Positions 1 through 18,955 of a stretch of 33,579 bases of DNA are shown in pieces. A program made the translations under genes and the position numbers. How positions within the stretch are numbered: position 1 is the stretch's first letter; every line of letters begins with the position of its first letter. The notes below the pieces were generated by a model. It worked only from the letters and a program-made list of their open reading frames with translations. It did not search any database and was not told the origin of the DNA. Origin of the DNA: Bacteroidota bacterium (GTDB taxonomy: Bacteria; Bacteroidota; Bacteroidia; 2-12-FULL-35-15); NCBI GenBank assembly GCA_947447995.1, contig CANFLQ010000018.1, positions 1 to 33,579 of the forward strand, given 5' to 3'.

Positions 1-1223
1 TCAAAGTCGAATGTTAAAGAAAAACGTAAGGTATTTTCAAGCGGATTTCTTTGTTTGGTAGGAATTAAATACGCAAAATCTAAACCAAATACATTGTATT
101 TAACACCTGCACCCAAAGTAACATATTGGCGATTGCCCTTCAATGGATTTTCATAAAAATAACCTCCTCTGATGGCAAACAATTTATTGTACCAATATTC
201 CATTCCGAAAGAATAATTAATCTCCTTTAACTCTTCTTTTGCTCCACCTGGAGCATCCGAAAACGACCCAAAAACACCACTAGCAACTCCTCTATTAGGA
301 TCTTTTCCATAAGCAATTTTATAACCACCACTACCATCAGGAATAACATTCCCTTTCGAATCCAGAAGGTACACAGGAGGTGTCGGCACTAATAATTTAT
401 TTGCATCAACTAGAAACGTTATACTATTATACTCATCTAAATTCAATGCCAATGAACTACCTAAACGCAAATTAATTGGAAGAAAATTTGAATTAGTTGC
501 GCTATTTCTATTTGAATATGACATTTTACCACCTATGTTAGAAATATTTGCTCCAAAAGTTAATATTCCTTCTTTACCACCTACTTTTATTTTGTCTTTA
601 CGATATGTTGCAGAAATATCTACAGCCAGTGTTCTTCCTGGTTTAGTTGCTGAACCATCCACAAAAGTACCTCCGGTTAAATTAGAATTTACATAACGCA
701 CTGCGCCTCCCATAGAAAAAACATTCGACAATTTTAATGCGTAACAAACATCCAAGGCAAATTCATTTGGTCTAAACTGACCAATTGTATTTCCATTAAT
801 ATCTGTAAATGTAATATCACCCAACGAAAAATATCTAAGAGATCCACCAAAAGTGCCATTCTTTTTAGTTTTATAATAACCCGATAAATAAGCAAGATTA
901 ATATCAGGAACTAATGCTCTTAACCAAGGAGTATAAGACACGCCAATTGCCATTTTTTTTTCTGCAAATGCTAATTTTGAAGCGTTCCAATGTACAGAAT
1001 TAGCATCAACAGAAGATGCTACTCCAGCATCCCCCATCCCTCCAGCTCTTGAATCGGGCGAAATCATTAAAAAAGGAACAGCTGTTGTAATTGTATTTAC
1101 ACGGGTATTTATTTGTTGACCCGAAATTTGATTGTAGTTAATTTGAGCATTTAAGCTATTTACAAGCGATGTAGCAAAAATTGCTGCTGCAAATTTTCCA
1201 TTTATTTTATTCATATAATCCAT
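1..1223 (-). CDS. porV: T9SS outer-membrane protein PorV (LptO), C-terminal end cut by window edge
   Basis: PorV is an outer-membrane beta-barrel of the type IX secretion system. In known systems it shuttles exported cargo from the translocon to the attachment complex and works with the sortase PorU. I translated the minus strand from 1223 and found an open frame of 407 codons to the edge. It has an N-terminal signal peptide ending near LNAQ, then the family hallmarks FLMISPDSRAGGMGDAG, SVHWNASKLAF and GGSLRYFSLG, then alternating barrel strands ending in LRFSLTFDF. That ending looks like the family C terminus, so only a few residues should be missing. ATG at 1223 gives the longest frame; ATG at 1214 (MNKINGKF) makes an equally good signal peptide. 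It lies 107 bases downstream of porU on the same strand and has a possible promoter of its own. A run of nine A occurs in the coding strand (953-961). Confidence 0.9.
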   Translation of the reverse strand, partial: MDYMNKINGKFAAAIFATSLVNSLNAQINYNQISGQQINTRVNTITTAVPFLMISPDSRAGGMGDAGVASSVDANSVHWNASKLAFAEKKMAIGVSYTPWLRALVPDINLAYLSGYYKTKKNGTFGGSLRYFSLGDITFTDINGNTIGQFRPNEFALDVCYALKLSNVFSMGGAVRYVNSNLTGGTFVDGSATKPGRTLAVDISATYRKDKIKVGGKEGILTFGANISNIGGKMSYSNRNSATNSNFLPINLRLGSSLALNLDEYNSITFLVDANKLLVPTPPVYLLDSKGNVIPDGSGGYKIAYGKDPNRGVASGVFGSFSDAPGGAKEELKEINYSFGMEYWYNKLFAIRGGYFYENPLKGNRQYVTLGAGVKYNVFGLDFAYLIPTKQRNPLENTLRFSLTFDF

Positions 1224-1318
1224 TTAATTACAATTTGATATTGAGTAAGTATTAAAAAAACTAAAAACTAAACGTTGATTAAACACAAATAGTATACAAC
1301 CTTTAAATTTAAAAAGCG

Positions 1319-1348
1319 CTAAAGTACAAATTAATTTAAAATGACCAA
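1319..1348 (-). promoter_or_regulatory. Candidate Bacteroidota promoter for porV
   Basis: On the minus strand, TTG (1348-1346) is followed by a 19-base spacer and TACTTTAG (1326-1319). This is one mismatch from the Bacteroidota -7 box TAnnTTTG and has the expected -33/-7 spacing. It overlaps the 3' end of porU, so porV may be transcribed separately as well as by read-through from porU. This is a pattern match only. Confidence 0.45.
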
Positions 1349-4300
1349 TTTTTCATATTTCTCAGCCGTTGAGCCATCATTTGTTTTTACTTTAATTCTA
1401 TATATATATACACCTCTCCCTATTTTATCTCCAAAATCATCTCTACCATCCCACTCTATTGGGTCTGATCGGTATCCATCAGTTCCAACAATTTTATTTA
1501 TTGTTTTTACAAGTTTTCCTGCAATTGTAAAAATTTGCACCTCTACATCCAACATATTACTTGATTGATTGTGCTCAAAATAAAATTGGGTTCTGGTTGT
1601 AAACGGATTTGGATAATTTAAAACATGACTTAATGCCAACTGTGCCGATTTAGCAACAACAAACTCCGTATAACACTCTGACGAATTATTGTATACATCC
1701 CAAACTTTTAATTTAAGAGTATGCTTTCCTTCTGTTAAATCGGAATAAGGATACCTTATTGTTCCACTTTTATAACTATTCAAATCAGCTTGATAATAGT
1801 CATTTAACACTGTTATTTTTTCATTGCTTCCATCTAATACTGCTGTAATATCGTGCCCAATGCCGTTACCCACTGTATTTACACCATTTGCATCTTTCAA
1901 AATTGAGTATAGGTAAGGATTTTCATTTGTTAAACCTCCAAAAACAAATTTGGTATCGTTCATATATAAATGAGTTTCAGGACCAACTAAATCTGCTATA
2001 GGAGAGGCGTTAGAACCGCCAACAACTATTTTCTCATAAAACCCATTTGCATCTTCTTCCCCATTATCTGAATAATAACTAATTCTACCTATTCCATAAT
2101 TATATGCAATATCTTTGGGTACAATAAATGAGAATTTAAACATACCATTGGTTACACTTACTTTACCATTATACAAAATATTTTTTTGAAGTTTAAAAGT
2201 AAATGGAGGACTTATATTGGAATCTGATCCATCATTGGAAAGTGTTGTTACCGATTGAGCTTTATCATAAACAGTAGGGTATAAAACGCCGTTAAATGTT
2301 GAATTCAAATTACCGTTACTATCTTTAACATGCCCACTCACGGTTACAAATGAAAGTGCTTTTATGGTATCCGCTGAGTTTGCTGATACAGCAATACTAT
2401 TGATACTATCTGTTGCGATATCATATTTGGGATATGCTAATGTTAACGCTGGGTCGCCAAGCAACGTAAAGTTTCTACTATTAACTGAATTACCTCCAGG
2501 TTGAGTTTTAGAGTATTTATAAATGTCTCCTAACCGAGGCATTTTACCATTAATAGGTTTAAATACGGCTTTATAAAAATCCCTGTTCAAATTAAAATTA
2601 GGATATGAATACACGACCCTAACAGTACTAAACAAAGCTATTGCACCACCATTGGAATTTAAAAATGCATATTCCCCTGCTGATGTTCTGTTAGGGTCAT
2701 CGTACCTACTCACTTCACAGGATGCAGTGTAAAATAAAAACAATTTATTACCATTACTCCATTTATTAATTTGAGGTATATCCACTATCCGTTCGTGAGC
2801 CAACCCTAACTCGCCACCATGACCTGTATAATTAATTACCAATGCCCCTTGATCTACCCTTCTATTAATAGCCTCTACAACTAAAGGGTAGCGATTCCCT
2901 CCTGGTTTGGTTTCCTGAAGATACGCATCCAAATAAATTTTATCCACGTTATAATCACCGTAAGTAGTATCTACTAAAGTAGCTAGCTGATCTGCTTGCG
3001 AAACATGTGTGTCTCCATCTTCATCATCACCAATAAAACAAATTACATTTCGCCAATTTCCAAATGTAGTACTGGAATTATTTTCAGATGTTGCACTACC
3101 TGTTTTTTTATAATTTACAACCTTATTAACTGCTGTTTGAGCTTCCAATTTAGATTTTACAGGAAAACGCCCAATACCTAAATCTACAGCATCTGCCGCC
3201 CACACGCCTTCATTATCATCCAATAAACCAAAAAAATCGTCGGACACATAAGAGGCGGTAGCAATGGATGAATTATCGGACTGGTATGTTATTATAAAAT
3301 TGGTATTGTTACTAAATCTATGTTTAGGATCAAAAGAACCATCGCCAAACAATAATAAATATTTAGGTAATTCGGCAGTTGTGTTAGCCTTATCATAAAA
3401 CATTTTTACAAAATCACGTATGGCAGAAACATCTTGAGCACCCGACGAAAATTCATTGTAAATTTGATCTGTTGTTACAACAACAGAAAACAACCCATCA
3501 ATATTTTCGTGATAGGCTGCCAATTGTTCTGCTTCTTGTAAAAAATTAGGATGAGCAATTATTATATACGCTCTATTTGATAATGCGTGCAAATTTTGAT
3601 TGAACACCTTACCAACAGCCGATGGTGTATAATAAGCCTGTCCGTTAAAAGCTACAAACTGACGTAATTTATCAGTAGGCAATGTAAACTCACTAACTGT
3701 TCCAGCAAATAATACATCTTGTTGTTTAACATTTGCAATGTCAGTAATATCCCAAACTTGAATAGGAGAATTACTTGTAATATTAAACTTAGAAATATTA
3801 CTAGCTCCAACTGAATTTACATCTCTAAAATTCAGTTGGTTGGCACTCAATATTAATTGACGCCTTACATTCACCTCCACATAATCAAGCCAAGCTATTG
3901 CATTAGAAGTTTGTTTGGCAACATTTACAGTTACTACAGGGCTAGTAGGATTAAAATTAAAACATCCAGTACCAACCTTAACATAGTCGCTATCCAATGC
4001 GTCTAATGTTTTAGGAATTGTAATTGAGGCGCTACCCAACTGACTACCGATTATATACGTTGCTGCATTTGTAAAACATCTAGAAGCAATGCTAACTTTA
4101 ACAACTGCAGGGGAACTCATGTCTATATCTGGAAATAAGAAAGGGAAATTATACGAGGGGTTATTTTCAAAATATTCGCCATACCAATATTTACCCGACT
4201 TCAGCGAATTTACATTGTCATTTTCATGAAAAGCGTAATCGTCAAAACTAGTAACATTTTTAGTTATCGGCAATATGGACGATGCTTGTATTTGAATTCT

Positions 4301-5170
4301 TTTTCCTACACCCATATCAAAATTGATAAAATAATATGCCGAATCTGAATATAAATTTAACGTATGACTAAATTTATTGCAAGCCGCACCACTATATGAC
4401 CAAGTATTTGAACCTTTGCCATAAAATAAAACGTAATCATTAACATTAAAAACACCATCCGATTCGCCATTCACAAATACCGCATTTTCAACAAGATCGT
4501 CAGGACGTGATACAGAATTTAATTCAGGCAACATGCCTCCTCCATTACCATAAATTCTAATATTCTTTGGATTTACCAAAGACATATCAATTCCTAAATT
4601 CTGTAAAAAGGAATACGATAACTTGTAGATACCATCACTGGCTATTGCTATTTTATACCAATCCCCTGTATTTAAAACTGAATTATTTGCATAAATGCGT
4701 GAAGACCGAACTCCTAATTTTAAATTACCACTATACCCTATTGATAATTCAAATGAAACTAGCTTTTCAAATTTCCCTGTATTTTTATTTTTACGAATTG
4801 GAATTAATGAAATTTCAGCATAATTCTTTTTTTGAGATATTAATACGGATGATTTAAGTTCAACCTCTTCCCCAATTTTTGATGGATTTTTTAACAATTG
4901 AACTTCGTCGTCCAACAATGGTTCAAAAACAGTATTGATAAAAGTTGCCTTAAAACTCTGTTGATTTTCAGTTAATAAAATTTGTTGTGTATACCTAGGC
5001 AAATAATTATCATCTAAATTATATTGCGCCCCATCAAATGACAAAAAGCGTTGTGTTTCTTCATCAGAAATTTTAACAGTAGTTGTAGCGTTCCAATTAA
5101 TTTTATACGACTGCGAAAAAATTAAACCTACAAACAAAAAAAAGAATAAAAATGTAAAACTAAATTTCAT
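1331..5170 (-). CDS. porU: Type IX secretion system sortase PorU (C25 gingipain-like peptidase)
   Basis: PorU is the cell-surface sortase of the T9SS. It removes the C-terminal sorting domain of cargo and, in Porphyromonas gingivalis, transfers the cargo to A-LPS. The product has 1279 residues with a signal peptide (residues 1 to about 21, ending FSQS). A long beta-rich N-terminal region precedes a peptidase C25 domain at roughly residues 530-910. The likely catalytic pair is His784 in NYTGHGGE and Cys818 in YTASCEVS; their 34-residue spacing is close to that of known PorU. The C terminus (about 1195-1279) is a FlgD/sorting-like domain with NYPNPFTT, EWDGRDDFG and GRGVYIYRIK. I chose ATG at 5170; the longer frame from 5176 would need a TTG start. 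Gene order porU then porV is typical of the phylum. The 270-base region upstream is shared with a divergent PorP/SprF gene. Confidence 0.95.
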   Translation of the reverse strand: MKFSFTFLFFFLFVGLIFSQSYKINWNATTTVKISDEETQRFLSFDGAQYNLDDNYLPRYTQQILLTENQQSFKATFINTVFEPLLDDEVQLLKNPSKIGEEVELKSSVLISQKKNYAEISLIPIRKNKNTGKFEKLVSFELSIGYSGNLKLGVRSSRIYANNSVLNTGDWYKIAIASDGIYKLSYSFLQNLGIDMSLVNPKNIRIYGNGGGMLPELNSVSRPDDLVENAVFVNGESDGVFNVNDYVLFYGKGSNTWSYSGAACNKFSHTLNLYSDSAYYFINFDMGVGKRIQIQASSILPITKNVTSFDDYAFHENDNVNSLKSGKYWYGEYFENNPSYNFPFLFPDIDMSSPAVVKVSIASRCFTNAATYIIGSQLGSASITIPKTLDALDSDYVKVGTGCFNFNPTSPVVTVNVAKQTSNAIAWLDYVEVNVRRQLILSANQLNFRDVNSVGASNISKFNITSNSPIQVWDITDIANVKQQDVLFAGTVSEFTLPTDKLRQFVAFNGQAYYTPSAVGKVFNQNLHALSNRAYIIIAHPNFLQEAEQLAAYHENIDGLFSVVVTTDQIYNEFSSGAQDVSAIRDFVKMFYDKANTTAELPKYLLLFGDGSFDPKHRFSNNTNFIITYQSDNSSIATASYVSDDFFGLLDDNEGVWAADAVDLGIGRFPVKSKLEAQTAVNKVVNYKKTGSATSENNSSTTFGNWRNVICFIGDDEDGDTHVSQADQLATLVDTTYGDYNVDKIYLDAYLQETKPGGNRYPLVVEAINRRVDQGALVINYTGHGGELGLAHERIVDIPQINKWSNGNKLFLFYTASCEVSRYDDPNRTSAGEYAFLNSNGGAIALFSTVRVVYSYPNFNLNRDFYKAVFKPINGKMPRLGDIYKYSKTQPGGNSVNSRNFTLLGDPALTLAYPKYDIATDSINSIAVSANSADTIKALSFVTVSGHVKDSNGNLNSTFNGVLYPTVYDKAQSVTTLSNDGSDSNISPPFTFKLQKNILYNGKVSVTNGMFKFSFIVPKDIAYNYGIGRISYYSDNGEEDANGFYEKIVVGGSNASPIADLVGPETHLYMNDTKFVFGGLTNENPYLYSILKDANGVNTVGNGIGHDITAVLDGSNEKITVLNDYYQADLNSYKSGTIRYPYSDLTEGKHTLKLKVWDVYNNSSECYTEFVVAKSAQLALSHVLNYPNPFTTRTQFYFEHNQSSNMLDVEVQIFTIAGKLVKTINKIVGTDGYRSDPIEWDGRDDFGDKIGRGVYIYRIKVKTNDGSTAEKYEKLVILN

Positions 5171-5352
5171 GAACAATAGTTAAAAACAATAAATAAATAT
5201 TAGAATTGATTAATCACAAGCTTAAAAAAATACAAGATTACAAAGTAATAAAAATATACAACATTAGACTACTTTAAAACTCTAAATTAAGGTTACTAAA
5301 GTTTTTTTTTTGAAGATTTGCTTTGATTAACGATTTTTTTAACCGAATATTG

Positions 5353-5413
5353 TATACTGAAAAATTAATTAATTGTTACCTATTTGAAACTTTTAATTAA
5401 TTTTTTCAGTATA
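5353..5413. repeat. Long AT-rich inverted repeat in the porU/porP-like divergent region
   Basis: The left arm 5353-5372 (TATACTGAAAAATTAATTAA) is the reverse complement of the right arm 5393-5413 apart from one extra T in the right arm. The 20-base loop is 5373-5392. The element ends 28 bases before the start of the PorP/SprF-family gene. It has no GC-rich stem or proper U-tract, so an operator or an mRNA 5' hairpin fits better than a terminator. The rest of the 5171-5441 gap is AT-rich and shows nothing else I can name. Confidence 0.7.
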
Positions 5414-5441
5414 ATTGTATCCCATTAAAAAAAAAGTGCTT

Positions 5442-6404
5442 ATGTCAAAACGAATTATTATACTCTTAACTGTACTATTTTCAGCCTTTTTAACTGAAAA
5501 TGTATTTGCTCAAGACCCCTTATTTACTCAATTCTACGCCAACCCACTATATCTAAACCCAGCATTAGCAGGTGCTGCAAGATGTCCTCGTATTTGTTTG
5601 AATTACCGTAACCAATGGCCTGGAATAGACGGTACCACTTACACTACCTATTCCGCATCTTACGATCAACATGTTGATGCCATTAGTGGAGGCTTGGGAT
5701 TACTTGTAACACATGACGATGCTGGCAATAAAGGGATTTTAAAAACAACAAACATTAGTGGGATGTACTCTTTCTTATTACCTGTATCGAGAACTTTTTC
5801 ATTAAAATTTGCTGCTCAGGGAACATGGTTTCAAAAAAAGATAGACTGGAATAGACTTACCTTTGGTGATATGATAGATCCAAGCAGAGGTTTTGTTTAT
5901 AATACTAACGAAGTAAAAAGACTCGACCAAAAATCTGGTATTGATATTTCTGCAGGTGCTTTAGGATATAGCAAATATATTTTTGTTGGTTTTGCTGCCC
6001 ACCATTTAACTCAGCCCGACGAGGGTTTATTGGGCAAAGCTCCGTTGCCTATGAAAATTACTGGTCATGCTGGTGCGGTTATACCTATAGGAGATAAATC
6101 CAGTGAAGTATCCATTTCGCCTAACATTTTATTCCAACAACAACAAAACTTTCAACAACTTAATATAGGAATGTATGTAACCAAAGGTCCGATTGTTGGA
6201 GGTTTGTGGTATAGAAACAGAGATTCTTTTATCATTTTACTAGGTATTCAACAACATTTTTTCAAACTTGGTTATAGTTACGATATAACATCTTCCAAGC
6301 TTACCAATACTACGGCAGGTTCTCATGAATTTTCTTTCGCATTAAATTTTGAATGCAAGAAGAAAATTAAAAAATTCAGAACAGTAAATTGCCCATCTTT
6401 TTAA
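5442..6404 (+). CDS. PorP/SprF-family type IX secretion membrane protein
   Basis: The product has 320 residues. A signal peptide (cleavage probably after VFA, residues 21-23) is followed at once by the family signature QDPLFTQFYANPLYLNPA. The rest is a predicted beta-barrel with ISGGLGLLV, FKLGYSYDI and SHEFSFALNF. Members of this family are outer-membrane proteins. PorP acts in the core T9SS with PorE/PorK, and SprF-type paralogues help secrete particular large adhesins. Bacteroidota often carry many paralogues, and sequence alone does not show which role this one has. I chose ATG at 5442 because it gives a clean signal peptide; the longer frame from 5415 would need TTG. It lies between porU and gldJ, 150 bases before gldJ and in the same direction, which suggests a role in the same machine. 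Confidence 0.88.
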   Translation: MSKRIIILLTVLFSAFLTENVFAQDPLFTQFYANPLYLNPALAGAARCPRICLNYRNQWPGIDGTTYTTYSASYDQHVDAISGGLGLLVTHDDAGNKGILKTTNISGMYSFLLPVSRTFSLKFAAQGTWFQKKIDWNRLTFGDMIDPSRGFVYNTNEVKRLDQKSGIDISAGALGYSKYIFVGFAAHHLTQPDEGLLGKAPLPMKITGHAGAVIPIGDKSSEVSISPNILFQQQQNFQQLNIGMYVTKGPIVGGLWYRNRDSFIILLGIQQHFFKLGYSYDITSSKLTNTTAGSHEFSFALNFECKKKIKKFRTVNCPSF

Positions 6405-6554
6405 ACTGTTTTTTTGAAATTATTTTTAGCTCATATAACACTTTTACATAATTAATAATGGAGTAAGTTTAATATACCTTAATAACGTGAATAAATAAAT
6501 TTGAAAATTTTATTTACACTAATTAATGTAAGTTGTAAACCAAAAATAAAAACA

Positions 6555-8099: not shown

Positions 8100-8112
8100 T
8101 ACAAACTTTTAT

Positions 8113-8146
8113 AAAAAAAAACTCCCAATTTAGGGAGTTTTTTTTT
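8113..8146. terminator. Bidirectional intrinsic terminator after gldJ
   Basis: The stem ACTCCC (8121-8126) pairs with GGGAGT (8133-8138) around the loop AATTTA. It is extended by eight A on the left and eight T on the right, so it gives a U-tract on either strand. It starts 14 bases after the gldJ stop and also faces the end of the convergent transporter gene 110 bases away. Confidence 0.9.
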
Positions 8147-8256
8147 GATAAAAATTGACAAAAAAAAATTACACCAATTTTATTAAAACCGATATTTAAG
8201 GATGGTAATATTGAGTATATTTATAAATATAGGCTTTAATATAACCATATATCAAT

Positions 8257-9663
8257 CTATTCAGAAATAAAACCTTGAGCCTTTAATATCTTAGAAACCT
8301 TCCAGGCATAAAATACCAAATAAATATAACAGAATATTGGTATAATAAACGACAAATGAACTCCGAATTTATCAGCAAATAATCCTTGTAAAGGAGGTAT
8401 AAGTGCTCCACCCAAAATAGCCATGACTAACAAAGAGGAACCTTGACTTGTGTGTTTACCAAGCCCTGTAATTGCCAAAGCAAAAATTGAAGGCCACATA
8501 ATAGAATTGTATAATCCTAAACTAATTAACGACCACAAAGCAATATCTCCAGTATTTACTACTGAAATAATCAAAAGCAAAATACAAACAACAGAAAATA
8601 TAAATAATGTTCTGGAGGGTTTTTCCTGCCCAATAAAAAATGCAATGACACTAATTGCAATAAAAGGAATGTAATACTCTATCATGGTCTGATAATCTAA
8701 CACATCATTTTGACCTGATTTAATTTTAAAAATAAATAAAATAAACAAATAAGTAGCCACAGGTATTATTGCCGTAAGTACCCTTTTTAATGCTATTGGC
8801 ATCATAAAAACAGAGAGAGAACCAGTGAACCGACCAATCATTAAACTACCCCAATACAAAGCTATATAAACGGTTGCCCCTTCAACAGGTATTCCTTTTA
8901 TTTCATTCAAACCAACAAAACCCGACATAAAACTACCTACAGTTACTTCAGCTCCAACATAAAAAAAAATGGCTATGATACCTAAGGTCAATTGAGGAAA
9001 TTTTAATGCCCCAATACCCTTTTCAATGTTTTTTTCATTGTTAAATTTAGGAAGCTTTACAACCTTAAAAACAATAATTAATAGCAAAAAAGCAGCAGTA
9101 AGAAATAAATAAGGTGCTTTTACAGAATCTATCTCATTGCCTTTAGCTGTAACATTTGATAAAATAAATACTCCACCTACTATTGGGGCAATAGTAGTAC
9201 CAAACGAATTAATTGCACCAGCGAGATTAAGCCTGTGTGAGCCTGTTTCAGGATTACCCAATAAAATAACATAAGGGTTGGCAGCTATTTGCAACAGGGT
9301 AAAACCTAGCGCTAAAATAAATAGTGCTGTTAAAAACAAACCAAAGGATTGTATTTCAGCTGCTGGATAAAACAAAAATGTTCCTACGGATGATATTAAT
9401 AAACCGAGTAAAATACCATTCTTATAACCAATCTTATTAATTGGATCGCCAGATATGGATGAAATAATAAAATAAATGATAGACCCAACAAAATAAGCAC
9501 CAAAAAAAGCAAACTGTACCAACATGGATTCAAAATATGTTAATACAAATATGTGTTTAAAATGTGGAATTAAAATATCATTCAAACATGTTATAAATCC
9601 CCACATAAAAAATAACATGGTAAGAAATGCCAAAGGCAGGGAGTAATTTTTTTTTGGTTCCAT
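8257..9663 (-). CDS. Sugar MFS transporter, FucP/GluP (fucose/glucose-galactose) type
   Basis: This is a 468-residue polytopic inner-membrane protein with about twelve hydrophobic segments. The N terminus (FLTMLFFMWGFITCLNDILIP) and the segment LLQIAANPYVILLG are characteristic of the FHS family of proton-sugar symporters, which includes E. coli FucP and Bacteroidota glucose/galactose transporters. The substrate cannot be read from sequence. The start ATG at 9663 gives the usual family N terminus. Codons 3-6 contain a run of nine A (9647-9655 on the plus strand), a possible slippage site near the start. It is followed by an AT-rich gap and the gldJ terminator. The next gene upstream on the same strand is waaA, 86 bases away, but nothing ties their functions together. 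Confidence 0.88.
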   Translation of the reverse strand: MEPKKNYSLPLAFLTMLFFMWGFITCLNDILIPHFKHIFVLTYFESMLVQFAFFGAYFVGSIIYFIISSISGDPINKIGYKNGILLGLLISSVGTFLFYPAAEIQSFGLFLTALFILALGFTLLQIAANPYVILLGNPETGSHRLNLAGAINSFGTTIAPIVGGVFILSNVTAKGNEIDSVKAPYLFLTAAFLLLIIVFKVVKLPKFNNEKNIEKGIGALKFPQLTLGIIAIFFYVGAEVTVGSFMSGFVGLNEIKGIPVEGATVYIALYWGSLMIGRFTGSLSVFMMPIALKRVLTAIIPVATYLFILFIFKIKSGQNDVLDYQTMIEYYIPFIAISVIAFFIGQEKPSRTLFIFSVVCILLLIISVVNTGDIALWSLISLGLYNSIMWPSIFALAITGLGKHTSQGSSLLVMAILGGALIPPLQGLFADKFGVHLSFIIPIFCYIYLVFYAWKVSKILKAQGFISE

Positions 9664-9749
9664 AAATTTTAAAAATTGATTTTACCGAAAATAGGACTTA
9701 TGTAATAAAGTTAGGATCGCAATAATTATATATTGTTAATATTGAATTG

Positions 9750-11292: not shown

Positions 11293-12435
11293 ATGGAAAA
11301 GGTATCAAAAAAAATTCAAATGGTTGACTTAAAAAGTCAATATGAAAACATCAAAACAGAAGTAGACGCTGCTATTCAAAACGTAATAAACAACACAGCT
11401 TTTATCAACGGGCCTGATGTTAAATTGTTTCAAACTGAATTAGAACAATACCTTAATGTAAAACACGTGATACCAGTTGCTAACGGCACCGATGCTTTGC
11501 AAATTGCAATGATGGCATTGGATTTAAAACCTGGCGACGAAGTTATTACTGCTGATTTTACTTATGTAGCTACTGCTGAAGTAATTGCTTTATTGGGCTT
11601 AAAGCCTGTTTTGGTAGATGTTAATCCCAACACATTTGATATTGATATTGCTGCTATTGAAAAAGCAATAACGCCAAAAACAAAAGCAATTGTTCCTGTA
11701 CATTTATTCGGACAATGTGCCAATATGGAAGCCATTATGGCTTTAGCTAAAAAACATAATTTATTTGTAATAGAAGATACAGCCCAAGCTACCGGCGCCG
11801 AATTCACATTTTCCGATGGCAAAAAACAAAAAGCCGGAACTATTGGAACCATTGGATGTACCTCCTTTTTTCCATCAAAAAATTTAGGTTGTTTTGGAGA
11901 TGGGGGAGCAATATTTACAAATGATGAAGTATTGGCTAAAAAAATAAAAATGATTGCTAATCACGGTCAATCTGTACAATATGTACATGATTCCATCGGC
12001 GTAAACTCCCGTTTAGATACTATACAAGCTGCTATTTTAAGAATTAAATTAGGCCATTTAGATGATTATGCTAAAGCACGTAACAAGGCGGCAGACTATT
12101 ATGACAAAGCCTTTGCAGGAAATGAAAAAATAAAAACTCCGGCTCGTGCAAAATTCTCAAACCACGTTTTTCATCAATATACTTTACAACTTAAAGGTGT
12201 TGACAGAACTGCTTTGAGAGAGTTTTTAACAGGCAAAGATATTCCTGCAATGATTTATTATCCAATCCCATTGCATTTGCAAAAAGCATACGTTGACCCA
12301 CGTTATAAGCAAGGTGATTTCCCAGTTACAGAAGCACTTTGTGCATCCGTAATCTCATTGCCTATGCATACGGAATTAGATGAAGAAACATTAAAATATA
12401 TTACTGATAATTTTTTAGAATTTGTGAATAAATAA
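11293..12435 (+). CDS. wbpE: DegT/DnrJ/EryC1 aminotransferase, WbpE/PorR type
   Basis: This is a PLP-dependent sugar aminotransferase of 380 residues. WbpE converts UDP-2-acetamido-3-keto-glucuronate to the 3-amino sugar, the third step toward UDP-GlcNAc(3NAc)A. The sequence shows the family start MVDLKSQYENIK, the cofactor region VANGTDALQIAM, the FVIEDTAQATGA motif, and the likely Schiff-base lysine Lys196 in FFPSKNLGCFGDGG. Length is as expected. The P. gingivalis homologue PorR is required for A-LPS and for surface retention of T9SS cargo. The assignment to WbpE rather than another DegT substrate class rests on co-occurrence with wbpD, wbpB and wbpA in the same cluster. It is the first gene of the cluster, next to a candidate promoter. 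Confidence 0.85.
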   Translation: MEKVSKKIQMVDLKSQYENIKTEVDAAIQNVINNTAFINGPDVKLFQTELEQYLNVKHVIPVANGTDALQIAMMALDLKPGDEVITADFTYVATAEVIALLGLKPVLVDVNPNTFDIDIAAIEKAITPKTKAIVPVHLFGQCANMEAIMALAKKHNLFVIEDTAQATGAEFTFSDGKKQKAGTIGTIGCTSFFPSKNLGCFGDGGAIFTNDEVLAKKIKMIANHGQSVQYVHDSIGVNSRLDTIQAAILRIKLGHLDDYAKARNKAADYYDKAFAGNEKIKTPARAKFSNHVFHQYTLQLKGVDRTALREFLTGKDIPAMIYYPIPLHLQKAYVDPRYKQGDFPVTEALCASVISLPMHTELDEETLKYITDNFLEFVNK

Positions 12436-12472
12436 AAATCAGATCAAGTAATAGGTTTCAAAATTTTGAAAC

Positions 12473-12493
12473 TTTGAACTTTGAACTTTGAAC
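12473..12493. repeat. Three perfect tandem TTTGAAC heptamers before ugd
   Basis: Units occupy 12473-12479, 12480-12486 and 12487-12493, preceded by a degenerate unit (TTTTGAAAC). The array ends 9 bases before the ugd start codon, inside the short gap after wbpE. Confidence 0.9.
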
Positions 12494-12502
12494 TCTTTTT
12501 AA

Positions 12503-13813
12503 ATGAATATTACAGTAGTTGGAACAGGATACGTTGGATTAGTTACCGGCACATGCTTAGCGGAAACAGGCAACCATGTAATATGTGTAGACATTGATGA
12601 AGTAAAAGTTCAAAAAATGAAATCAGGCATTGTTCCTATTTATGAACCACATCTGGATTCATTATTTGAGCGTAACATAAAACAAGGGCGATTAACCTTT
12701 ACCACCAATCTATCAGAAGCAGTTGAAAATGCAAAAATCATTTTTCTTGCTTTACCAACCCCTCCCGGCGAAGATGGCTCTGCCGACCTAAGTTACATTC
12801 TTGGTGTAGCAGATAATTTAGGAAAGCTGATAAAAGATTACAAAGTAATTGTTGACAAAAGCACCGTACCTGTTGGAACTGCAGACAAGGTGCGCGAAGC
12901 AATTGCCAAACATGCCAAAGTAGAATTTGATGTGGTATCTAATCCCGAATTTTTAAGAGAAGGATTTGCTGTGGATGATTTCCTTAAACCCGACAGAGTG
13001 GTTATAGGTACGAGTTCTGCCAAGGCTCAAAAAGTAATGGAAGAGCTTTACAAGCCTTATGTTCGCCAAGGTAATCCTATTATCATAATGGATGAAAGAT
13101 CGGCTGAATTAACCAAATATGCCGCCAATGCCTTTTTGGCAACCAAAATTACGTTTATGAATGAAATTGCCAACCTTTGCGAAAAAGTTGGTGCCGACGT
13201 AGATGCTGTTAGAATTGGCATTGGCAGTGATGCAAGAATAGGTAAACGATTTTTATTTCCAGGAATTGGCTATGGCGGAAGTTGTTTTCCTAAAGATGTT
13301 CAGGCATTAGCAAAATCATCGAGTGATGTAAATTACAGTTTTAAAATTTTGGAAGCCGTAATGAACGTTAATGACAAACAAAAAACAATCATCATTCCAA
13401 AAATTAAAAATTATTTTAAAAATAATTTAAAGGGTAAAAAAATAGCCATTTGGGGATTAGCTTTTAAACCCGATACCGATGATATACGGGAGGCTCCAGC
13501 ATTATATATCATAAATGAACTCATAAACGAAGGAGTGCAAATTTCGGCTTATGACCCTGAAGCAATGAATAATGTACGTAACCTTTTGGGCGATAAAATT
13601 GTATACGCCACAAATGAATATGACGCATTGCGCGAAGCTGATGCTTTGATAATTACAACAGAATGGAGTTTATTTAGAACACCAGATTTTGACAAAATGG
13701 CTCAACTTTTAAACAATAAGATTATTTTTGATGGTCGAAATTTGTATGATCTTCAGCAAATGAAAAACTTAGGATTTTATTATTCTTCGATTGGTAGAGA
13801 AATAGTAAAATAA
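12503..13813 (+). CDS. ugd: UDP-glucose 6-dehydrogenase
   Basis: This enzyme oxidises UDP-glucose to UDP-glucuronate with two NAD+ in the cytoplasm. The product has 436 residues with an N-terminal Rossmann motif (VVGTGYVGLVTG), LPTPPGEDGSADLSY, the STVPVGTAD segment, the central NPEFLREGFAVDDF motif typical of UDP-glucose dehydrogenases, and catalytic Cys261 in GYGGSCFPKD. The C-terminal domain contains WGLAFKPDTDDIREAPA. It belongs to a different subfamily from the second dehydrogenase of the cluster (16541-17830), so the two are not redundant. The next gene, a UDP-glucuronate decarboxylase, would use its product. Confidence 0.93.
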   Translation: MNITVVGTGYVGLVTGTCLAETGNHVICVDIDEVKVQKMKSGIVPIYEPHLDSLFERNIKQGRLTFTTNLSEAVENAKIIFLALPTPPGEDGSADLSYILGVADNLGKLIKDYKVIVDKSTVPVGTADKVREAIAKHAKVEFDVVSNPEFLREGFAVDDFLKPDRVVIGTSSAKAQKVMEELYKPYVRQGNPIIIMDERSAELTKYAANAFLATKITFMNEIANLCEKVGADVDAVRIGIGSDARIGKRFLFPGIGYGGSCFPKDVQALAKSSSDVNYSFKILEAVMNVNDKQKTIIIPKIKNYFKNNLKGKKIAIWGLAFKPDTDDIREAPALYIINELINEGVQISAYDPEAMNNVRNLLGDKIVYATNEYDALREADALIITTEWSLFRTPDFDKMAQLLNNKIIFDGRNLYDLQQMKNLGFYYSSIGREIVK

Positions 13814-13841
13814 TTACGAAATACGATTGACGAATTAGGAA
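13814..13841. repeat. Degenerate 7-base repeats (TTACGAA type) between ugd and the UXS gene
   Basis: Four successive heptads, TTACGAA, ATACGAT, TGACGAA and TTAGGAA, fill the gap right after the ugd stop and end 13 bases before the next start codon. Confidence 0.65.
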
Positions 13842-13854
13842 AGAAAAGATATAA

Positions 13855-14826
13855 ATGAAAAGAGTTTTAATTACAGGTGCTGCAGGTTTTTTAGGTTCAC
13901 ACCTTTGCGATAGATTTATTAAAGAAGGATTTCATGTAATAGGTATGGATAACCTAATTACAGGTGATCTAAAAAATATTGAACACCTGTTGAAACTAGA
14001 ACACTTTGAATTTTACCATCACGATATTTCTAAATTTGTTTTTGTACCTGGAGAACTGCATTATATTTTGCACTTTGCATCACCCGCAAGCCCTATCGAT
14101 TATTTAGAAATCCCCATACAAACACTTAAAGTTAGCTCACTTGGCACTCATAACTTACTTGGATTAGCAAAATCAAAAAATGCCAGAATCCTTGTGGCTT
14201 CTACATCCGAAGTTTATGGCGACCCGCTTGTTCATCCACAAACAGAGGAATATTGGGGAAATGTAAACCCTGTTGGTCCAAGAGGAGTTTACGATGAAGC
14301 TAAGCGTTTTATGGAAGCTATAACAATGGCATACCATACATATCATGGTTTAGAAACTCGTATTGTTCGTATTTTTAATACGTATGGTTCAAGAATGCGC
14401 CTGAATGACGGAAGAGTATTACCTGCATTTATAGGGCAAGCGCTAAGAGGCGAAGATTTAACCATGTTTGGCGACGGTTCACAAACTCGTTCGTTTTGTT
14501 ATGTAGACGATTTGATTGAAGGGATTTACAGATTATTGATGAGCGATTATTCACAACCAGTAAACATTGGAAACCCCGATGAAATAAGCATCAAAGAATT
14601 TGGTGAAGAGATAATAAAACTAACAAAAACATCGCAAAAATTAATTTCCAAACCATTGCCTCAGGACGATCCTAAACAACGTAAACCTGACATTTCCAAA
14701 GCAAAAACTATTTTAAAATGGGAACCCAAAGTAGGACGTGCAGAAGGATTAAAGATTACTTACGAATATTTTAAAAATCTTTCAAAAGAAGAATTAAATA
14801 AAACAGAACACCGATTTAAAAAATAA
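13855..14826 (+). CDS. UDP-glucuronate decarboxylase (UDP-xylose synthase), extended SDR
   Basis: This is an extended short-chain dehydrogenase of 323 residues that most likely converts UDP-glucuronate to UDP-xylose. It shows the NAD-binding GAAGFLGSH near the N terminus, then [20 protein letters not shown] and the [18 protein letters not shown] block, with catalytic Tyr146 and Lys150. SPASP together with EYWGNVNP is characteristic of UXS enzymes rather than of generic epimerases. [14 protein letters not shown] follows in the substrate domain. It sits 41 bases after ugd, which makes its substrate. A 4-epimerase would be the main alternative, but these motifs argue against it. Confidence 0.88.
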
Positions 14827-14831
14827 AATTT

Positions 14832-15401
14832 ATGGATTATTATGCGCACCCCACAGCCTTAGTTGATGAAGGTTGTAAAATTGGGAAAAACACTAAAATA
14901 TGGCATTTTTCCCACATCATGCCCAATTGCACTTTAGGAGAAAATTGCAATATTGGTCAGAACGTTGTTATTTCCCCAGAAGTTATTTTGGGAAAAAATG
15001 TAAAAGTACAAAACAACGTATCTATATACACAGGAGTTATTTGTGATGACGATGTTTTTTTAGGTCCATCCATGGTATTTACCAACGTAATTAACCCCCG
15101 TAGCGCTATTAATCGTAAAAACGAATATGCAAAAACACATGTAGGCAAAGGAGCTTCAATTGGTGCAAATGCAACTATCGTTTGCGGACATGATATTGGA
15201 GAATACGCCTTTATTGGAGCGGGTGCTGTGGTTACAAAAAATGTACCCCCTTACTCGCTTTGGATTGGCAACCCAGCCAAACAATTGGGATGGATAAGTG
15301 AATACGGACATCGTTTAAAATTTGACTCCAACAACATTGCCATTTGCCCCGAAAGCAAAGTAAGTTACAAATTAGATAATGGAACGATAATAGTACTATA
15401 A
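14832..15401 (+). CDS. wbpD: UDP-2-acetamido-3-amino-glucuronate N-acetyltransferase, WbpD type
   Basis: This is a left-handed beta-helix acetyltransferase of 189 residues. WbpD acetylates the 3-amino group made by WbpE, giving UDP-2,3-diacetamido-2,3-dideoxy-glucuronate. The sequence begins [15 protein letters not shown] and continues with hexapeptide repeats ([41 protein letters not shown]). It includes [17 protein letters not shown] and [18 protein letters not shown], which are typical of the WbpD/WlbB group. It starts five bases after the preceding stop and is followed 49 bases later by wbpB, so co-transcription is likely. Confidence 0.88.
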
Positions 15402-15450
15402 AAAACAATTAATTAAATTTAAGTCGTTAAATAATTAAAAAAAAAACATT

Positions 15451-16479: not shown

Positions 16480-16540
16480 AATAGTTAAACTATACTTTAA
16501 AATATCGAAACATATTTATACCATCTAAAAATATAATAAC

Positions 16541-17830
16541 ATGTATAACAAAATTTTAAAAAAAGAAGCCAAAATTGCATTAATAGGCTTAGGATATGTT
16601 GGTTTACCAATAGCGTTGGCTTTTGCTAAAAAAGTAAAGGTTATAGGGTTTGATATAAACGAAGAAAGAGTTAAGATGATGCAAAATAAAATAGATCCTT
16701 CTAAGGAATTAGAATCTAAGGATTTTGACGGTTGCGACATTGAATTTACTTCCTCTTTAGATGTTTTAAAGCAAGCTAATTTTTTTATTGTTGCCGTACC
16801 TACAGATATTGACGAACATAAACTGCCAAACTTAAAACCTTTATTGGGAGCATCGTCTACTGTTGGAAAAGTAATTAAAAAGGGCGATTACGTAGTATTT
16901 GAATCCACGGTATACCCTGGATGTACCGAGGAAGATTGTATACCTGTGATTGAACAAATATCTGGATTAAAATTTAAAACCGATTTTAAAGTTGGTTACT
17001 CCCCCGAACGAATTAACCCAGGTGACAAGGAACATACCATCACCAAAATTTTAAAAGTAGTTTCTGGCTGTTGCGAAGAATCTTTAGAAACGGTTGCCGA
17101 TGTTTATAAGATTATTGTTGAACCTGGAGTTCATAAAGCTCCATCTATTAAAGTTGCCGAAGCCGCTAAAATAATTGAGAACACTCAACGCGATTTAAAC
17201 ATTGCTTTGATGAATGAATTATCAATTATTTTTAGCCGTATTGGAATTAATACTTTTGATGTATTGGAAGCCGCAGGAACCAAATGGAACTTTTTAAAAT
17301 TTTCGCCAGGATTGGTTGGAGGACATTGTATTGGTGTTGATCCTTATTATTTAACGTATAAGGCAGAATCATTAGGATACCACGCAAGAGTTATAAACTC
17401 CAGCAGATATGTTAATGATTCCATGGGTTTTTATATTGCAAAACAAACTGTTAAAAAAATAATTGCAGCCCGAAAAAATCTTACCGAATCTAGAATTTTA
17501 GTAATGGGCGCAACATTTAAAGAAAACGTAAGTGATATACGCAATTCTAAAGTTACCGACATCATAAAAGAATTCAAATCGTTTGGTGTATCAGTTGATG
17601 TTGTTGACCCTTATGCGTCTTCAAAAGACTTACAGCATGAATATGGATTTGGACTAGCTGCTACCATTGGAAAAGGTTACGATGCAGTTGTTGTGGCTGT
17701 TAACCATACAGAATATGCAGGTTTAAATGAAGCCTACTTTAAATCCATACTATCAGAAGGTGGAATTTTAGTAGATGTAAAAGGTATTTTTAAAGGTCAA
17801 ATTAAAGATTTAACATACTGGAGTCTTTAG
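16541..17830 (+). CDS. wbpA: UDP-N-acetylglucosamine 6-dehydrogenase, WbpA/TviB type
   Basis: This enzyme oxidises a UDP-N-acetylhexosamine to the uronic acid and would be the first step of the Wbp route. The product has 429 residues with the N-terminal motif LIGLGYVGLPIALAF, VPTDIDEHKLPNL, STVYPGCTEE, YSPERINPGDKEH and catalytic Cys263 in GGHCIGVDPYYLTYKA. The C-terminal domain carries VMGATFKENVSDIRNSK. These are hallmarks of the TviB/WbpA/WbpO group, distinct from UDP-glucose dehydrogenase. Whether it prefers UDP-GlcNAc or UDP-GalNAc cannot be read from sequence; its neighbours wbpB, wbpD and wbpE favour UDP-GlcNAc. Confidence 0.85.
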   Translation: MYNKILKKEAKIALIGLGYVGLPIALAFAKKVKVIGFDINEERVKMMQNKIDPSKELESKDFDGCDIEFTSSLDVLKQANFFIVAVPTDIDEHKLPNLKPLLGASSTVGKVIKKGDYVVFESTVYPGCTEEDCIPVIEQISGLKFKTDFKVGYSPERINPGDKEHTITKILKVVSGCCEESLETVADVYKIIVEPGVHKAPSIKVAEAAKIIENTQRDLNIALMNELSIIFSRIGINTFDVLEAAGTKWNFLKFSPGLVGGHCIGVDPYYLTYKAESLGYHARVINSSRYVNDSMGFYIAKQTVKKIIAARKNLTESRILVMGATFKENVSDIRNSKVTDIIKEFKSFGVSVDVVDPYASSKDLQHEYGFGLAATIGKGYDAVVVAVNHTEYAGLNEAYFKSILSEGGILVDVKGIFKGQIKDLTYWSL

Positions 17831-17838
17831 AAAGAATC

Positions 17839-17866
17839 AAGATTTAAGACATAAGATTTAAGATAA
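17839..17866. repeat. 7-base repeats (AAGATTT/AAGACAT type) before rfbB
   Basis: The heptads AAGATTT, AAGACAT, AAGATTT and AAGATAA run in tandem, giving an 11-base exact direct repeat with a 14-base period. The array ends 15 bases before the rfbB start codon. Confidence 0.8.
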
Positions 17867-17881
17867 ATTAGGAGTTTAAAA

Positions 17882-18955
17882 ATGAAAAAAATACTAATCA
17901 CCGGCGGTGCGGGATTCATCGGTTCACATGTAGTACGTTTATTTGTAAATAAATACCCTAACTATCAAATTGTTAATTTAGATAAACTTACTTATGCTGG
18001 CAATTTAGCTAACTTAACAGACATTGAAAAAAAGCCAAATTACGAATTTGTAAAAGGTGATATTGTTGATGCCGAATTTATCAATAACTTATTTTGCAAA
18101 TATAAATTTGACGGAGTAATTCACCTTGCAGCAGAAAGCCACGTAGACAGGAGCATTACCAACCCATTGGAGTTTGTAATGACCAATGTAATAGGTACAG
18201 TAAATCTTTTAAATGCAGCAAAAGCTAATTGGTTACAAATTCCTTCTCATATTGGTACTGATGGGAAAGAGTTTCGTTTTTATCACGTTTCCACAGATGA
18301 AGTATACGGTAGTTTAGGCGAAACTGGAATGTTTACAGAAAATACAGGATATGACCCGCATAGCCCCTACTCTGCTTCAAAAGCTAGTTCCGACCATTTT
18401 GTAAGAGCATATCACGATACGTATGGCTTAAATATTGCAATTTCAAATTGCTCTAACAACTACGGTAGTTACCATTTTCCCGAAAAATTAATTCCCTTAT
18501 CAATCAACAATATCAAAAACAATAAACCAATTCCTATTTACGGAAAAGGCGAAAACATTAGAGATTGGCTTTGGGTAGAAGATCATGCAAGAGCAATTGA
18601 CCTTATTTATCATAAGGCAAAAACAGGAACAACTTATAACATTGGAGGGCATAACGAATGGACTAATATTGATTTAATTCATTTGCTTTGTAAAATAATG
18701 GACAAAAAATTAAATCGTACTCCGGGAGATTCTGCAAAATTAATTACATACGTAAAAGACCGTGCTGGACACGATTTGCGTTACGCTATTGATTCATCAA
18801 AATTACAAAACGAATTAGGATGGACTCCCTCTTTACAATTTGAAGAAGGCTTAGAAAAAACCGTAGATTGGTATCTTCAAAATTCCGAATGGCTTAACAA
18901 TATAACTTCTGGTGATTATAAAAAATATTACGAAAAGCAATATTCAAAAAGATAA
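17882..18955 (+). CDS. rfbB: dTDP-glucose 4,6-dehydratase
   Basis: This extended SDR enzyme of 357 residues converts dTDP-glucose to dTDP-4-keto-6-deoxyglucose. It has the NAD motif TGGAGFIGSH, the diagnostic DKLTYAGNLANL block, HLAAESHVDRSI, the catalytic triplet Thr138-Asp139-Glu140 in STDEVYG, Tyr163 and Lys167 in YSASK, and NCSNNYGSYHFPEKLIPL. All are diagnostic of RmlB. No rmlA, rmlC or rmlD is present here, so they must lie elsewhere, or the keto sugar feeds another pathway. It follows wbpA by 51 bases, filled largely by heptad repeats. Confidence 0.93.
   Translation: MKKILITGGAGFIGSHVVRLFVNKYPNYQIVNLDKLTYAGNLANLTDIEKKPNYEFVKGDIVDAEFINNLFCKYKFDGVIHLAAESHVDRSITNPLEFVMTNVIGTVNLLNAAKANWLQIPSHIGTDGKEFRFYHVSTDEVYGSLGETGMFTENTGYDPHSPYSASKASSDHFVRAYHDTYGLNIAISNCSNNYGSYHFPEKLIPLSINNIKNNKPIPIYGKGENIRDWLWVEDHARAIDLIYHKAKTGTTYNIGGHNEWTNIDLIHLLCKIMDKKLNRTPGDSAKLITYVKDRAGHDLRYAIDSSKLQNELGWTPSLQFEEGLEKTVDWYLQNSEWLNNITSGDYKKYYEKQYSKR

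What the first reader, a model, noticed from the sequence alone, without database searches (positions are those of the whole stretch)
1..18955. T9SS sortase genes close to a complete four-step Wbp linking-sugar pathway
Seen: PorU (His784/Cys818 intact) and PorV at 1-5170, the Kdo transferase at 9750-10994, and WbpE, WbpD, WbpB and WbpA homologues at 11293-17830. Known: in Porphyromonas gingivalis PorU attaches T9SS cargo to A-LPS through a linking sugar made by the Wbp and Vim enzymes, and PorR is the WbpE homologue there. Inference: this organism anchors T9SS cargo by the same route, and the genes have been kept near each other. The Ugd/UDP-xylose pair and RfbB in the same cluster could supply other sugars of the surface polysaccharide. 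No Vim homologue is present in the window.
Basis: partly seen in the sequence, partly recalled or inferred. Interest (0 to 1): 0.8.

Follow-up and report, generated by a model that had tools for sequence, protein, structure and literature searches.

The report
Split Wbp/Vim-like pathway beside T9SS genes
An uncultured Bacteroidota bacterium carries homologues of the enzymes that in gum-disease bacteria make the sugar tying secreted proteins to the cell surface, but the closeness of the sortase and sugar genes that drew attention looks like a local rearrangement in this genome.

Summary
The genes are as described: PorV (cut off at the contig end), PorU with His/Cys intact, PorP/SprF, GldJ, a WaaA-like gene, then wbpE-ugd-uxs-wbpD-wbpB-wbpA-rmlB. 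"Kept near each other" fails: PorU and WbpD share a contig in 1 of 34 genus genomes, PorU and WbpB lie within 20 kb in 1 of 44 phylum genomes; both times it is this genome. Two separately conserved blocks meet at 8099/8257. The pathway idea survives a test that could have hurt it. On another contig (C20) lies wbpI-vimE-vimA: a WbpI-type 2-epimerase, a VimE homologue (NF053580, 168 bits, below the 440-bit cut-off) and a FemAB-like protein of the group that aligns with the gene near an above-cut-off VimE (hhalign 1.9e-27). VimE is in 34 of 36 genus genomes, wbpI upstream of it in 30 of 30 loci. With 65 CTD matches, a Tannerella-like anchor (2-N-aminoacyl-3-N-acetyl-mannuronic acid) is the best reading, about 0.55. 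Main rival: the sugar serves ordinary O-antigen; the genome has a WbpG/HisH/HisF2-type module in a polysaccharide-type locus. New lead: 10 of 12 operons of relatives carry an AAC(3)-like acyltransferase between vimE and vimA, 11 a deacetylase-like protein; this genome has neither there.

The parts
3..1223 (-). PorV, T9SS shuttle protein (runs off the window edge)
   Evidence: NF033710 496 bits, cut-off 250
1331..5176 (-). PorU, T9SS C-terminal sortase, catalytic His and Cys present, own CTD
   Evidence: NF033707 1347 bits; TIGR04183 29 bits; His786/Cys820 from TTG start
5415..6404 (+). PorP/SprF family protein
   Evidence: TIGR03519 240 bits
6501..8099 (+). GldJ lipoprotein; right edge of the conserved PorV-PorU-PorP-GldJ block
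   Evidence: TIGR03524 461 bits, cut-off 458; block in 19 of 20 fetched genus PorU loci
8100..8256 (.). junction between the T9SS block and the FucP-WaaA-wbp block, not seen in the relatives fetched; holds a hairpin followed by a T run
   Evidence: sequence printed
8257..9663 (-). FucP/GluP-like MFS transporter
   Evidence: TIGR01272 283 bits
9750..10994 (-). WaaA-like Kdo transferase
   Evidence: NF004389 163 bits, below its cut-off
11293..12435 (+). WbpE (PorR-type) aminotransferase
   Evidence: PDB WbpE 3nyu/3nu7 E 2e-97
12503..13813 (+). UDP-glucose 6-dehydrogenase (Ugd)
   Evidence: NF047673 558 bits (below its cut-off), TIGR03026 over cut-off
13855..14826 (+). UDP-glucuronate decarboxylase (Uxs, gives UDP-xylose)
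   Evidence: PDB 4gll/2b69 E 5e-103
14832..15401 (+). WbpD/WlbB-type N-acetyltransferase
   Evidence: PDB 3mqg E 1e-63; in 35 of 36 genus genomes, 78-89% identity outside the own genome
15451..16479 (+). WbpB/WlbA-type 3-dehydrogenase
   Evidence: PDB 3q2i E 8e-58; 62 of 392 phylum genomes at E<=1e-45
16541..17830 (+). WbpA/TviB-type UDP-HexNAc 6-dehydrogenase
   Evidence: NF011729 458 bits, below cut-off; TIGR03026 over cut-off
17882..18955 (+). RmlB dTDP-glucose 4,6-dehydratase
   Evidence: TIGR01181 475 bits, cut-off 365
19063..19812 (+). CpsB/CapC-family protein near the wbp genes
   Evidence: PF19567 158 bits; near the wbp genes in many relatives
26013..26939 (+). predicted T9SS type A cargo
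   Evidence: TIGR04183 43 bits

Best explanation
The window joins two separately conserved gene blocks, PorV-PorU-PorP-GldJ and a surface-sugar cluster, by a rearrangement seen in this genome only among those sampled. The cluster makes UDP-GlcNAc(3NAc)A: WbpA oxidises UDP-GlcNAc, WbpB and WbpE put an amine on C-3, WbpD acetylates it. Enzymes of a second locus on contig C20 finish the job: WbpI epimerises C-2 to the manno form, a VimE-type deacetylase frees the C-2 amine, a VimA-type FemAB transferase adds an amino acid. That sugar becomes part of an LPS chain, and PorU joins the new C terminus of CTD cargo to its amino acid, as in Tannerella forsythia. Shown here: the genes, their homology and their conservation in the genus. 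Inferred: every reaction, the order of steps, which amino acid, the incorporation into LPS and the ligation to cargo.
For: wbpE/D/B/A homologues together; the run wbpE-ugd-uxs-wbpD-wbpB-wbpA-rmlB complete in 21 of 34 fetched loci of relatives. On C20 a WbpI-type epimerase (PDB E 5e-107), 3 bases on a VimE homologue (NF053580 E 2.5e-49; group aligns with an above-cut-off VimE at 2e-32), 3 bases on a VimA-like protein (20% identity, E 3e-10 to the FemAB-type gene near that VimE; its group by profile 1.9e-27). wbpI upstream of vimE in 30 of 30 loci, in one with a small ORF between; VimE in 34 of 36, WbpD in 35 of 36, PorU in 34 of 36 genus genomes. 65 over-cut-off CTD matches, PorU and PorU2 among them. 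Among 270 PorU+ phylum genomes VimA+VimE go with WbpB (24, 16, 32, 198; OR 9.3, p 2e-9), also counted by family (9, 4, 7, 35; p 7e-4). VimE-like genes lie beside T9SS core genes in 7 of 80 named loci. T. forsythia has a predicted epimerase (BFO_2566) and vimA (BFO_2568) with neighbouring tags (PMC7468200, passages).
Against: VimE is below the equivalog cut-off (168 vs 440 bits); Pfam sees only DUF7033 in it and no deacetylase domain, and none in the VimA-like protein; its TIGR03019 score is 25 bits, cut-off 260. VimE/VimA also occur where WbpB was not found (16 of 40 PorU+ genomes with both); 4 of 44 VimA+VimE genomes and 15 of 114 VimE genomes gave no PorU match. Within families the Wbp-Vim association is weak (Mantel-Haenszel OR 2.8, chi2 0.38, 8 families). 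VimE and PorU lie within 20 kb in 0 of 63 phylum genomes. VimF, the A-LPS-specific glycosyltransferases and a ligase were not sought. A WbpG/HisH/HisF2-type module in a polysaccharide-type locus offers another use for the sugar.
Confidence: 0.55

Rival explanations
1. The Wbp product is a plain O-antigen sugar (ManNAc3NAcA, possibly amidinated as in Pseudomonas aeruginosa) and has nothing to do with T9SS cargo; the VimE/VimA pair works on another sugar.
For: Contig C5 holds HisH (244 bits, cut-off 105) - AglZ/HisF2 (343 bits, cut-off 310) - WbuX (274 bits, cut-off 203) - AsnB-like downstream of an ABC-2/Wzt-type transporter and of ORFs that look like glycosyltransferases by eye (not family-tested). 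VimE/VimA occur without WbpB and, more rarely, without PorU. Wbp sugars are O-antigen parts in P. aeruginosa and Bordetella pertussis (PMC4031482, passages). Ugd, Uxs and RmlB in the cluster fit a general polysaccharide.
Against: A wbpI-vimE-vimA operon is what a linking-sugar pathway needs, and wbpI-vimE is genus-wide. An O-antigen role does not exclude a linking role: in P. gingivalis the linker sits on O-polysaccharide (PMC13086638, passages).
Confidence: 0.3
2. PorU-PorV and the wbp genes are held together by selection as one functional cluster.
For: They lie 6-12 kb apart here. In one other family (f25) PorU and WbpB are 35-92 kb apart in 9 genomes.
Against: Same contig in 1 of 34 genus genomes; 0 of 34 wbp neighbourhoods and 0 of 20 PorU neighbourhoods of relatives contain the other block; within 20 kb in 1 of 44 phylum genomes. 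In P. gingivalis the wbp genes are scattered (PMC4031482, passages).
Confidence: 0.04
3. The junction at 8099/8257 is an assembly or binning error, so the two blocks are not neighbours in any real genome.
For: 207-contig draft genome; the junction was seen in none of the relatives fetched.
Against: Convergent gene ends 157 bases apart with an intact hairpin and T run; base composition similar on both sides (33.6% against 30.0% and 34.3% G+C); the flanking genes keep the order they have in relatives.
Confidence: 0.1

Closest known systems
Wbp/Vim linking-sugar pathway of Tannerella forsythia (2-N-glycyl, 3-N-acetylmannuronic acid)
   Same: WbpA, B, E, D homologues plus a WbpI-type epimerase followed by VimE-like and VimA-like genes; PorU, PorV and CTD cargo present
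   Different: wbp and wbpI-vim loci lie on separate contigs; VimE is a distant homologue below the NCBIfam cut-off; the amino acid and the product are unknown; T. forsythia proteins were not compared directly
Wbp/Vim pathway of Porphyromonas gingivalis (SAGA linking sugar)
   Same: Same four Wbp steps, VimE/VimA-type genes, PorU sortase
   Different: P. gingivalis has no wbpI and scattered wbp genes (PMC4031482, passages); here wbpI is present, wbp genes are clustered, and WbpS is uncertain (two AsnB-like proteins below the TIGR03108 cut-off)
Wbp pathway to UDP-ManNAc(3NAc)A of Pseudomonas aeruginosa and Bordetella pertussis
   Same: WbpA/B/E/D/I homologues; a WbpG/HisH/HisF2-type module also occurs in the genome
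   Different: Those species lack T9SS (recalled); here the epimerase gene is followed by vimE-like and vimA-like genes
Prevotella intermedia T9SS anchor (N-alanyl deoxyhexose)
   Same: PorU and C-terminal sugar anchoring
   Different: P. intermedia lacks WbpB, WbpD, VimA and VimE (PMC11969387, passages); this genome has homologues of all four
Ugd-dependent glycosylation in Cytophaga hutchinsonii
   Same: A Ugd gene; there its deletion weakened glycosylation of a CTD-tagged protein, lowered xylose in glycoproteins and truncated LPS (PMC11858162, passages)
   Different: No Wbp or linking sugar is mentioned in that paper (0 occurrences)

Membership tests
T9SS sortase PorU | Full-length match to the PorU equivalog with catalytic His and Cys | tested here: met
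   NF033707 1347 bits, cut-off 420; His and Cys present
[quoted passage not shown]
   WbpA is the least specific assignment (TviB model below cut-off)
UDP-ManNAc(3NAc)A branch | WbpI-type 2-epimerase | tested here: met
   L007:6361-7530, PDB 8sxy (UDP-2,3-diacetamido-2,3-dideoxy-glucuronic acid 2-epimerase) E 5e-107; other 2-epimerases 1e-52 to 1e-21, except 4neq at 1e-92, so not a clean separation
Wbp/Vim linking-sugar pathway | VimE homologue | tested here: met
   L007:7534-8838, NF053580 E 2.5e-49; hhalign of its group with an above-cut-off VimE, E 2e-32
Wbp/Vim linking-sugar pathway | VimE at equivalog level (NF053580 cut-off 440 bits) | tested here: not met
   168 bits; 1 of 392 phylum genomes passes. 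Hence called VimE-like, and the system is said to work like the pathway, not to be a strict member
Wbp/Vim linking-sugar pathway | VimA homologue beside VimE | tested here: met
   L007:8842-9762; 20% identity, E 3e-10 to the FemAB-type gene near the above-cut-off VimE of G372; profile of relatives (A3, own protein not a row but matching it at 9e-100) against that gene E 1.9e-27
Wbp/Vim linking-sugar pathway | WbpS amidotransferase (not essential for conjugation; not apparent in T. forsythia) | tested here: inconclusive
   two full-length AsnB-like proteins, 563 and 495 bits, TIGR03108 cut-off 817
Wbp/Vim linking-sugar pathway | VimF and the A-LPS-specific glycosyltransferases; LPS ligase | not tested
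Wbp/Vim linking-sugar pathway | Cargo amide-linked at its C terminus to an aminoacylated diamino-uronic acid | not testable with these tools
   needs mass spectrometry
Conserved porUV-wbp gene neighbourhood | porU within 20 kb of wbp genes in relatives | tested here: not met
   1 of 34 in the genus, 1 of 44 in the phylum sample, the window's genome both times

The most novel reading that the evidence does not exclude
Linking sugars diversify by exchange of N-acylation modules at one spot, between vimE and vimA. In most relatives read that slot carries an AAC(3)-family N-acyltransferase plus a deacetylase-like protein, which would strip and re-acylate the second (C-3) nitrogen; one relative (G002) has a 117-residue protein, an FkbH-like protein and a divergent AAC(3)-like protein in place of the usual acyltransferase; the window's species lacks the module there and would make the plain one-amino-acid sugar. 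Related species would then anchor T9SS cargo through chemically different linkers made from one Wbp backbone.
Probability: 0.25. Interest if true: 0.6.

Novelty: new member of a known kind. Interest (0 to 1): 0.4.

Why it matters
How Bacteroidota outside the mouth anchor T9SS cargo is largely open: the papers whose passages I read give linking sugars for P. gingivalis, T. forsythia and P. intermedia, and the last differs. If the reading holds, a Tannerella-type linker reaches an uncultured Bacteroidota genus, and the combination of wbpB, vimE and vimA (24 of 270 PorU+ genomes sampled) tells which species to test by mass spectrometry. It also shows that closeness of two gene blocks in one draft genome, however suggestive, is not evidence of a functional link.

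Tried and rejected
Rejected: proximity as evidence. Corrected: from loci of ±1.5 kb I first took VimA to be replaced by an AAC(3)-like protein in most of the genus; wider loci showed the VimA-like gene further downstream in 12 of 12 operons of relatives. VimE-PorU proximity as a general rule: 0 of 63 phylum genomes within 20 kb, closest 21.65 kb. Within-family association of Wbp with Vim: weak (the 8 families that can contribute); the strong overall odds ratio is mostly a difference between families. Genome counts are floors: per genome only the best 2 (PorU), 4 (VimE) or 5 (WbpB, VimA) candidates were scored. The 80 named loci are the best 80 of 579 and biased to our VimE; L265 (a PorP-family hit only) and L211 (a 30% GldJ hit, not checked) were left out of the 7 of 80. 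A PF01522 search of the genome found three other deacetylases, not the C20 protein. A VimE profile found no solved structure. VimA as an NCBIfam member: even the VimA-like protein near the above-cut-off VimE matches no model at 1e-5, so that library cannot decide. Literature: in the listings of searches (10 of 17 shown; 15 of 177 shown), 82, 83 and 84 I saw no survey of Wbp/Vim genes over T9SS bacteria; PMC7468200 discusses vim/wbp/sortase association briefly and PMC4031482 names Zobellia and Odoribacter as Wbp carriers (passages).
Full report
What is in the window. The window is contig C18 of a 3.08 Mb draft genome. It holds PorV, PorU, PorP/SprF and GldJ, a FucP-like transporter and a WaaA-like Kdo transferase on the other strand, then wbpE-ugd-uxs-wbpD-wbpB-wbpA-rmlB and a CpsB-family gene. 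The catalytic His and Cys of PorU are there. The nearest named records are uncultured Bacteroidota MAGs, some with doubtful species labels such as Chitinophaga pinensis.

Is the closeness meaningful? No. The window's family is represented by one genus, 36 genomes. WbpD is in 35 of 36, PorU in 34 of 36; 34 have both, and only the window's genome has them on one contig. Many are drafts, but two in about 7 and 10 contigs also keep them on different contigs. I fetched 34 WbpD neighbourhoods of relatives (up to 10 kb each side, shorter at contig ends): at E<=1e-15 and 30% identity none contains PorU, PorV, PorP or GldJ. The run wbpE-ugd-uxs-wbpD-wbpB-wbpA-rmlB is complete in 21 of the 34; 4 are cut by contig ends (L074, L081, L096, L099), 8 lack uxs-ugd-wbpE upstream of wbpD (L076, L077, L080, L088, L090, L092, L094, L095) and one has uxs but not ugd or wbpE (L104) (my tally). 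I also fetched 20 PorU neighbourhoods: PorV-PorU-PorP-GldJ is intact in 19 (the other, L281, is one of two PorU copies of G019), and none contains wbp, WaaA or FucP. So two conserved blocks meet at 8099/8257 in this genome. In a phylum sample of 392 genomes, 270 have PorU and 62 have WbpB at E<=1e-45 (at most 5 candidates scored per genome, so possibly an undercount). Of 56 with both, PorU positions were printed for 44; PorU-WbpB lie within 20 kb in one, the window's. In family f25 they lie 35-92 kb apart in 9 genomes, a loose linkage.

Are there Vim genes? A first search with a FemAB model found a weak match on contig C20 (23 bits). Reading around it showed radC, a WbpI-type 2-epimerase, a 434-residue DUF7033 protein and a 306-residue protein in a row, with 3 bases between each of the last three. 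The DUF7033 protein matches NCBIfam deacetylase_VimE (E 2.5e-49, 168 bits; cut-off 440); Pfam gives DUF7033 only, and nothing for the 306-residue protein. One phylum genome, G372 (unnamed), has a VimE above the cut-off (675 bits), then a PIG-L-type gene, then a FemAB-type gene. Our VimA-like protein is 20% identical to that FemAB-type protein (E 3e-10). Profile comparison puts our VimE-like group against that VimE at E 2e-32 over 328 columns, and the VimA-like group (A3, which the own protein matches at 9e-100) against its FemAB-type companion at E 1.9e-27 over 277 columns. Against solved structures the VimA-like profile finds FemX first, weakly (E about 0.01), which fits an amino-acid transferase. 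VimE-like genes are in 34 of 36 genus genomes; wbpI lies upstream in 30 of 30 loci shown, in one (L071) with a small ORF between; a VimA-like gene is in 12 of 12 operons of relatives read. So the genome has homologues for the Wbp, epimerase, VimE and VimA steps of a Tannerella-type linking sugar. It also has 65 over-cut-off CTD matches, PorU and PorU2 among them.

How well does the set travel together? Of 392 phylum genomes, 114 have VimE (E<=1e-15) and 57 VimA-like (E<=1e-12). Among 270 PorU+ genomes, WbpB is present in 24 of 40 with VimA and VimE and in 32 of 230 without (OR 9.3, p 2e-9). Counted by family (my hand count of 55 PorU+ families) the table is 9, 4, 7, 35, p 7e-4. Within families the signal is weak (Mantel-Haenszel OR 2.8, chi2 0.38), so shared ancestry explains much of it. 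VimE and VimA lie within 3 kb in 18 of 44 genomes with both; WbpB and VimE within 20 kb in 7 of 37; VimE and PorU in 0 of 63. Against an exclusive link: 16 of 40 PorU+ genomes with VimA and VimE lack WbpB, and 15 of 114 VimE genomes gave no PorU match. VimE-like genes do touch T9SS core genes elsewhere: in L240, L243 and L270 they lie a few genes upstream of PorP-GldK-GldL-GldM-GldN, in L231 and L273 PorV and the VimA-like gene are neighbours about 5-6 kb from VimE, in L250 PorU is 4.8 kb away, in L259 GldJ is 7 kb away: 7 of 80 named loci, perhaps three or four independent arrangements (family models were run for L270, L231, L250 and L259 only). I have no measured chance rate for this.

The rival. 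The genome may have another use for a Wbp sugar. On contig C5, downstream of an ABC-2/Wzt-type transporter and of ORFs that look like glycosyltransferases by eye, lie HisH, AglZ/HisF2, WbuX and an AsnB-like protein, a set that in P. aeruginosa amidinates such a sugar for the O-antigen (recalled). The two uses do not exclude each other: in P. [quoted passage not shown] Uxs and RmlB in the window's cluster could supply a pentose and a deoxyhexose of such a linker; this is only a match of composition. In Cytophaga hutchinsonii a ugd deletion weakened glycosylation of a CTD-tagged protein and truncated LPS (PMC11858162, passages).

What is new. The reading makes this genome a new member of a known kind, with the pathway split over two loci and a VimE below the equivalog cut-off. 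The unexpected part lies in the relatives. In 10 of 12 operons of relatives an AAC(3)-like protein (PF02522 in both members tested) sits between vimE and vimA, and in 11 of 12 a deacetylase-like protein (PF01522 at 21 bits, cut-off 23, in one full-length member; no match for a partial one); the window's genome and G033 have neither there, and G002 keeps the deacetylase-like gene but has a 117-residue protein, an FkbH-like protein and a divergent AAC(3)-like protein (PF02522, 79 bits) in place of the usual one. I did not search the rest of the window's genome for the missing pair.

Limits. All functions are by homology. The amino acid, the epimer and the ligation are not shown. VimF, ligase and Wzx/Wzy were not searched. 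P. gingivalis and T. forsythia proteins themselves were not compared; G372, whose species is unknown, stands in for them. Contig breaks hide some neighbourhoods. 

Noticed in passing
L106:7278-9169, L108:6930-8818 and other genus operons: AAC(3)-like N-acyltransferase (family PF02522) plus a deacetylase-like protein with a conserved HDIQLHIHPHWED stretch between vimE and vimA; both missing at this place in the window's genome and in G033.
   Followed up: partly
L107:11391-14238: In G002 the slot between vimE and vimA holds a 117-residue protein, an FkbH-like protein (PF21211) and a divergent AAC(3)-like protein, suggesting a different acyl group.
   Followed up: partly
L240, L243, L270: VimE-like gene a few genes upstream of PorP-GldK-GldL-GldM-GldN in Bacteroidota MAGs (family models run for L270 only).
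   Followed up: partly
L231:15884-18105, L273:14933-17279: PorV and the VimA-like gene are convergent neighbours, with VimE-like about 5-6 kb from VimA.
   Followed up: partly
L298:10828-15312 (contig C5): HisH - AglZ/HisF2 - WbuX - AsnB-like run downstream of an ABC-2/Wzt-type transporter (L300:9649-11907).
   Followed up: yes
G007:C114:3400-11217 and G017:C5:159535-167387: PorU is duplicated in tandem in two genus members (55-62% identity of the copies to the window's PorU).
   Followed up: no
L011:11332-16377 (contig C61): PorU2, a second C25-type protein (NF052324, 751 bits).
   Followed up: no
27032-28115: Two short ORFs, the second with a CHU_C type B sorting domain; may be one cargo gene interrupted by a frame change. 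Described only.
   Followed up: no
phylum genomes of family f25 (e.g. G350, G104, G210): PorU and WbpB lie 35-92 kb apart on one contig in 9 genomes, a loose linkage not seen in the other families of the sample with printed positions.
   Followed up: partly
L188, L118 (G372): A PIG-L-type gene lies between the VimA-like and the above-cut-off VimE gene.
   Followed up: no
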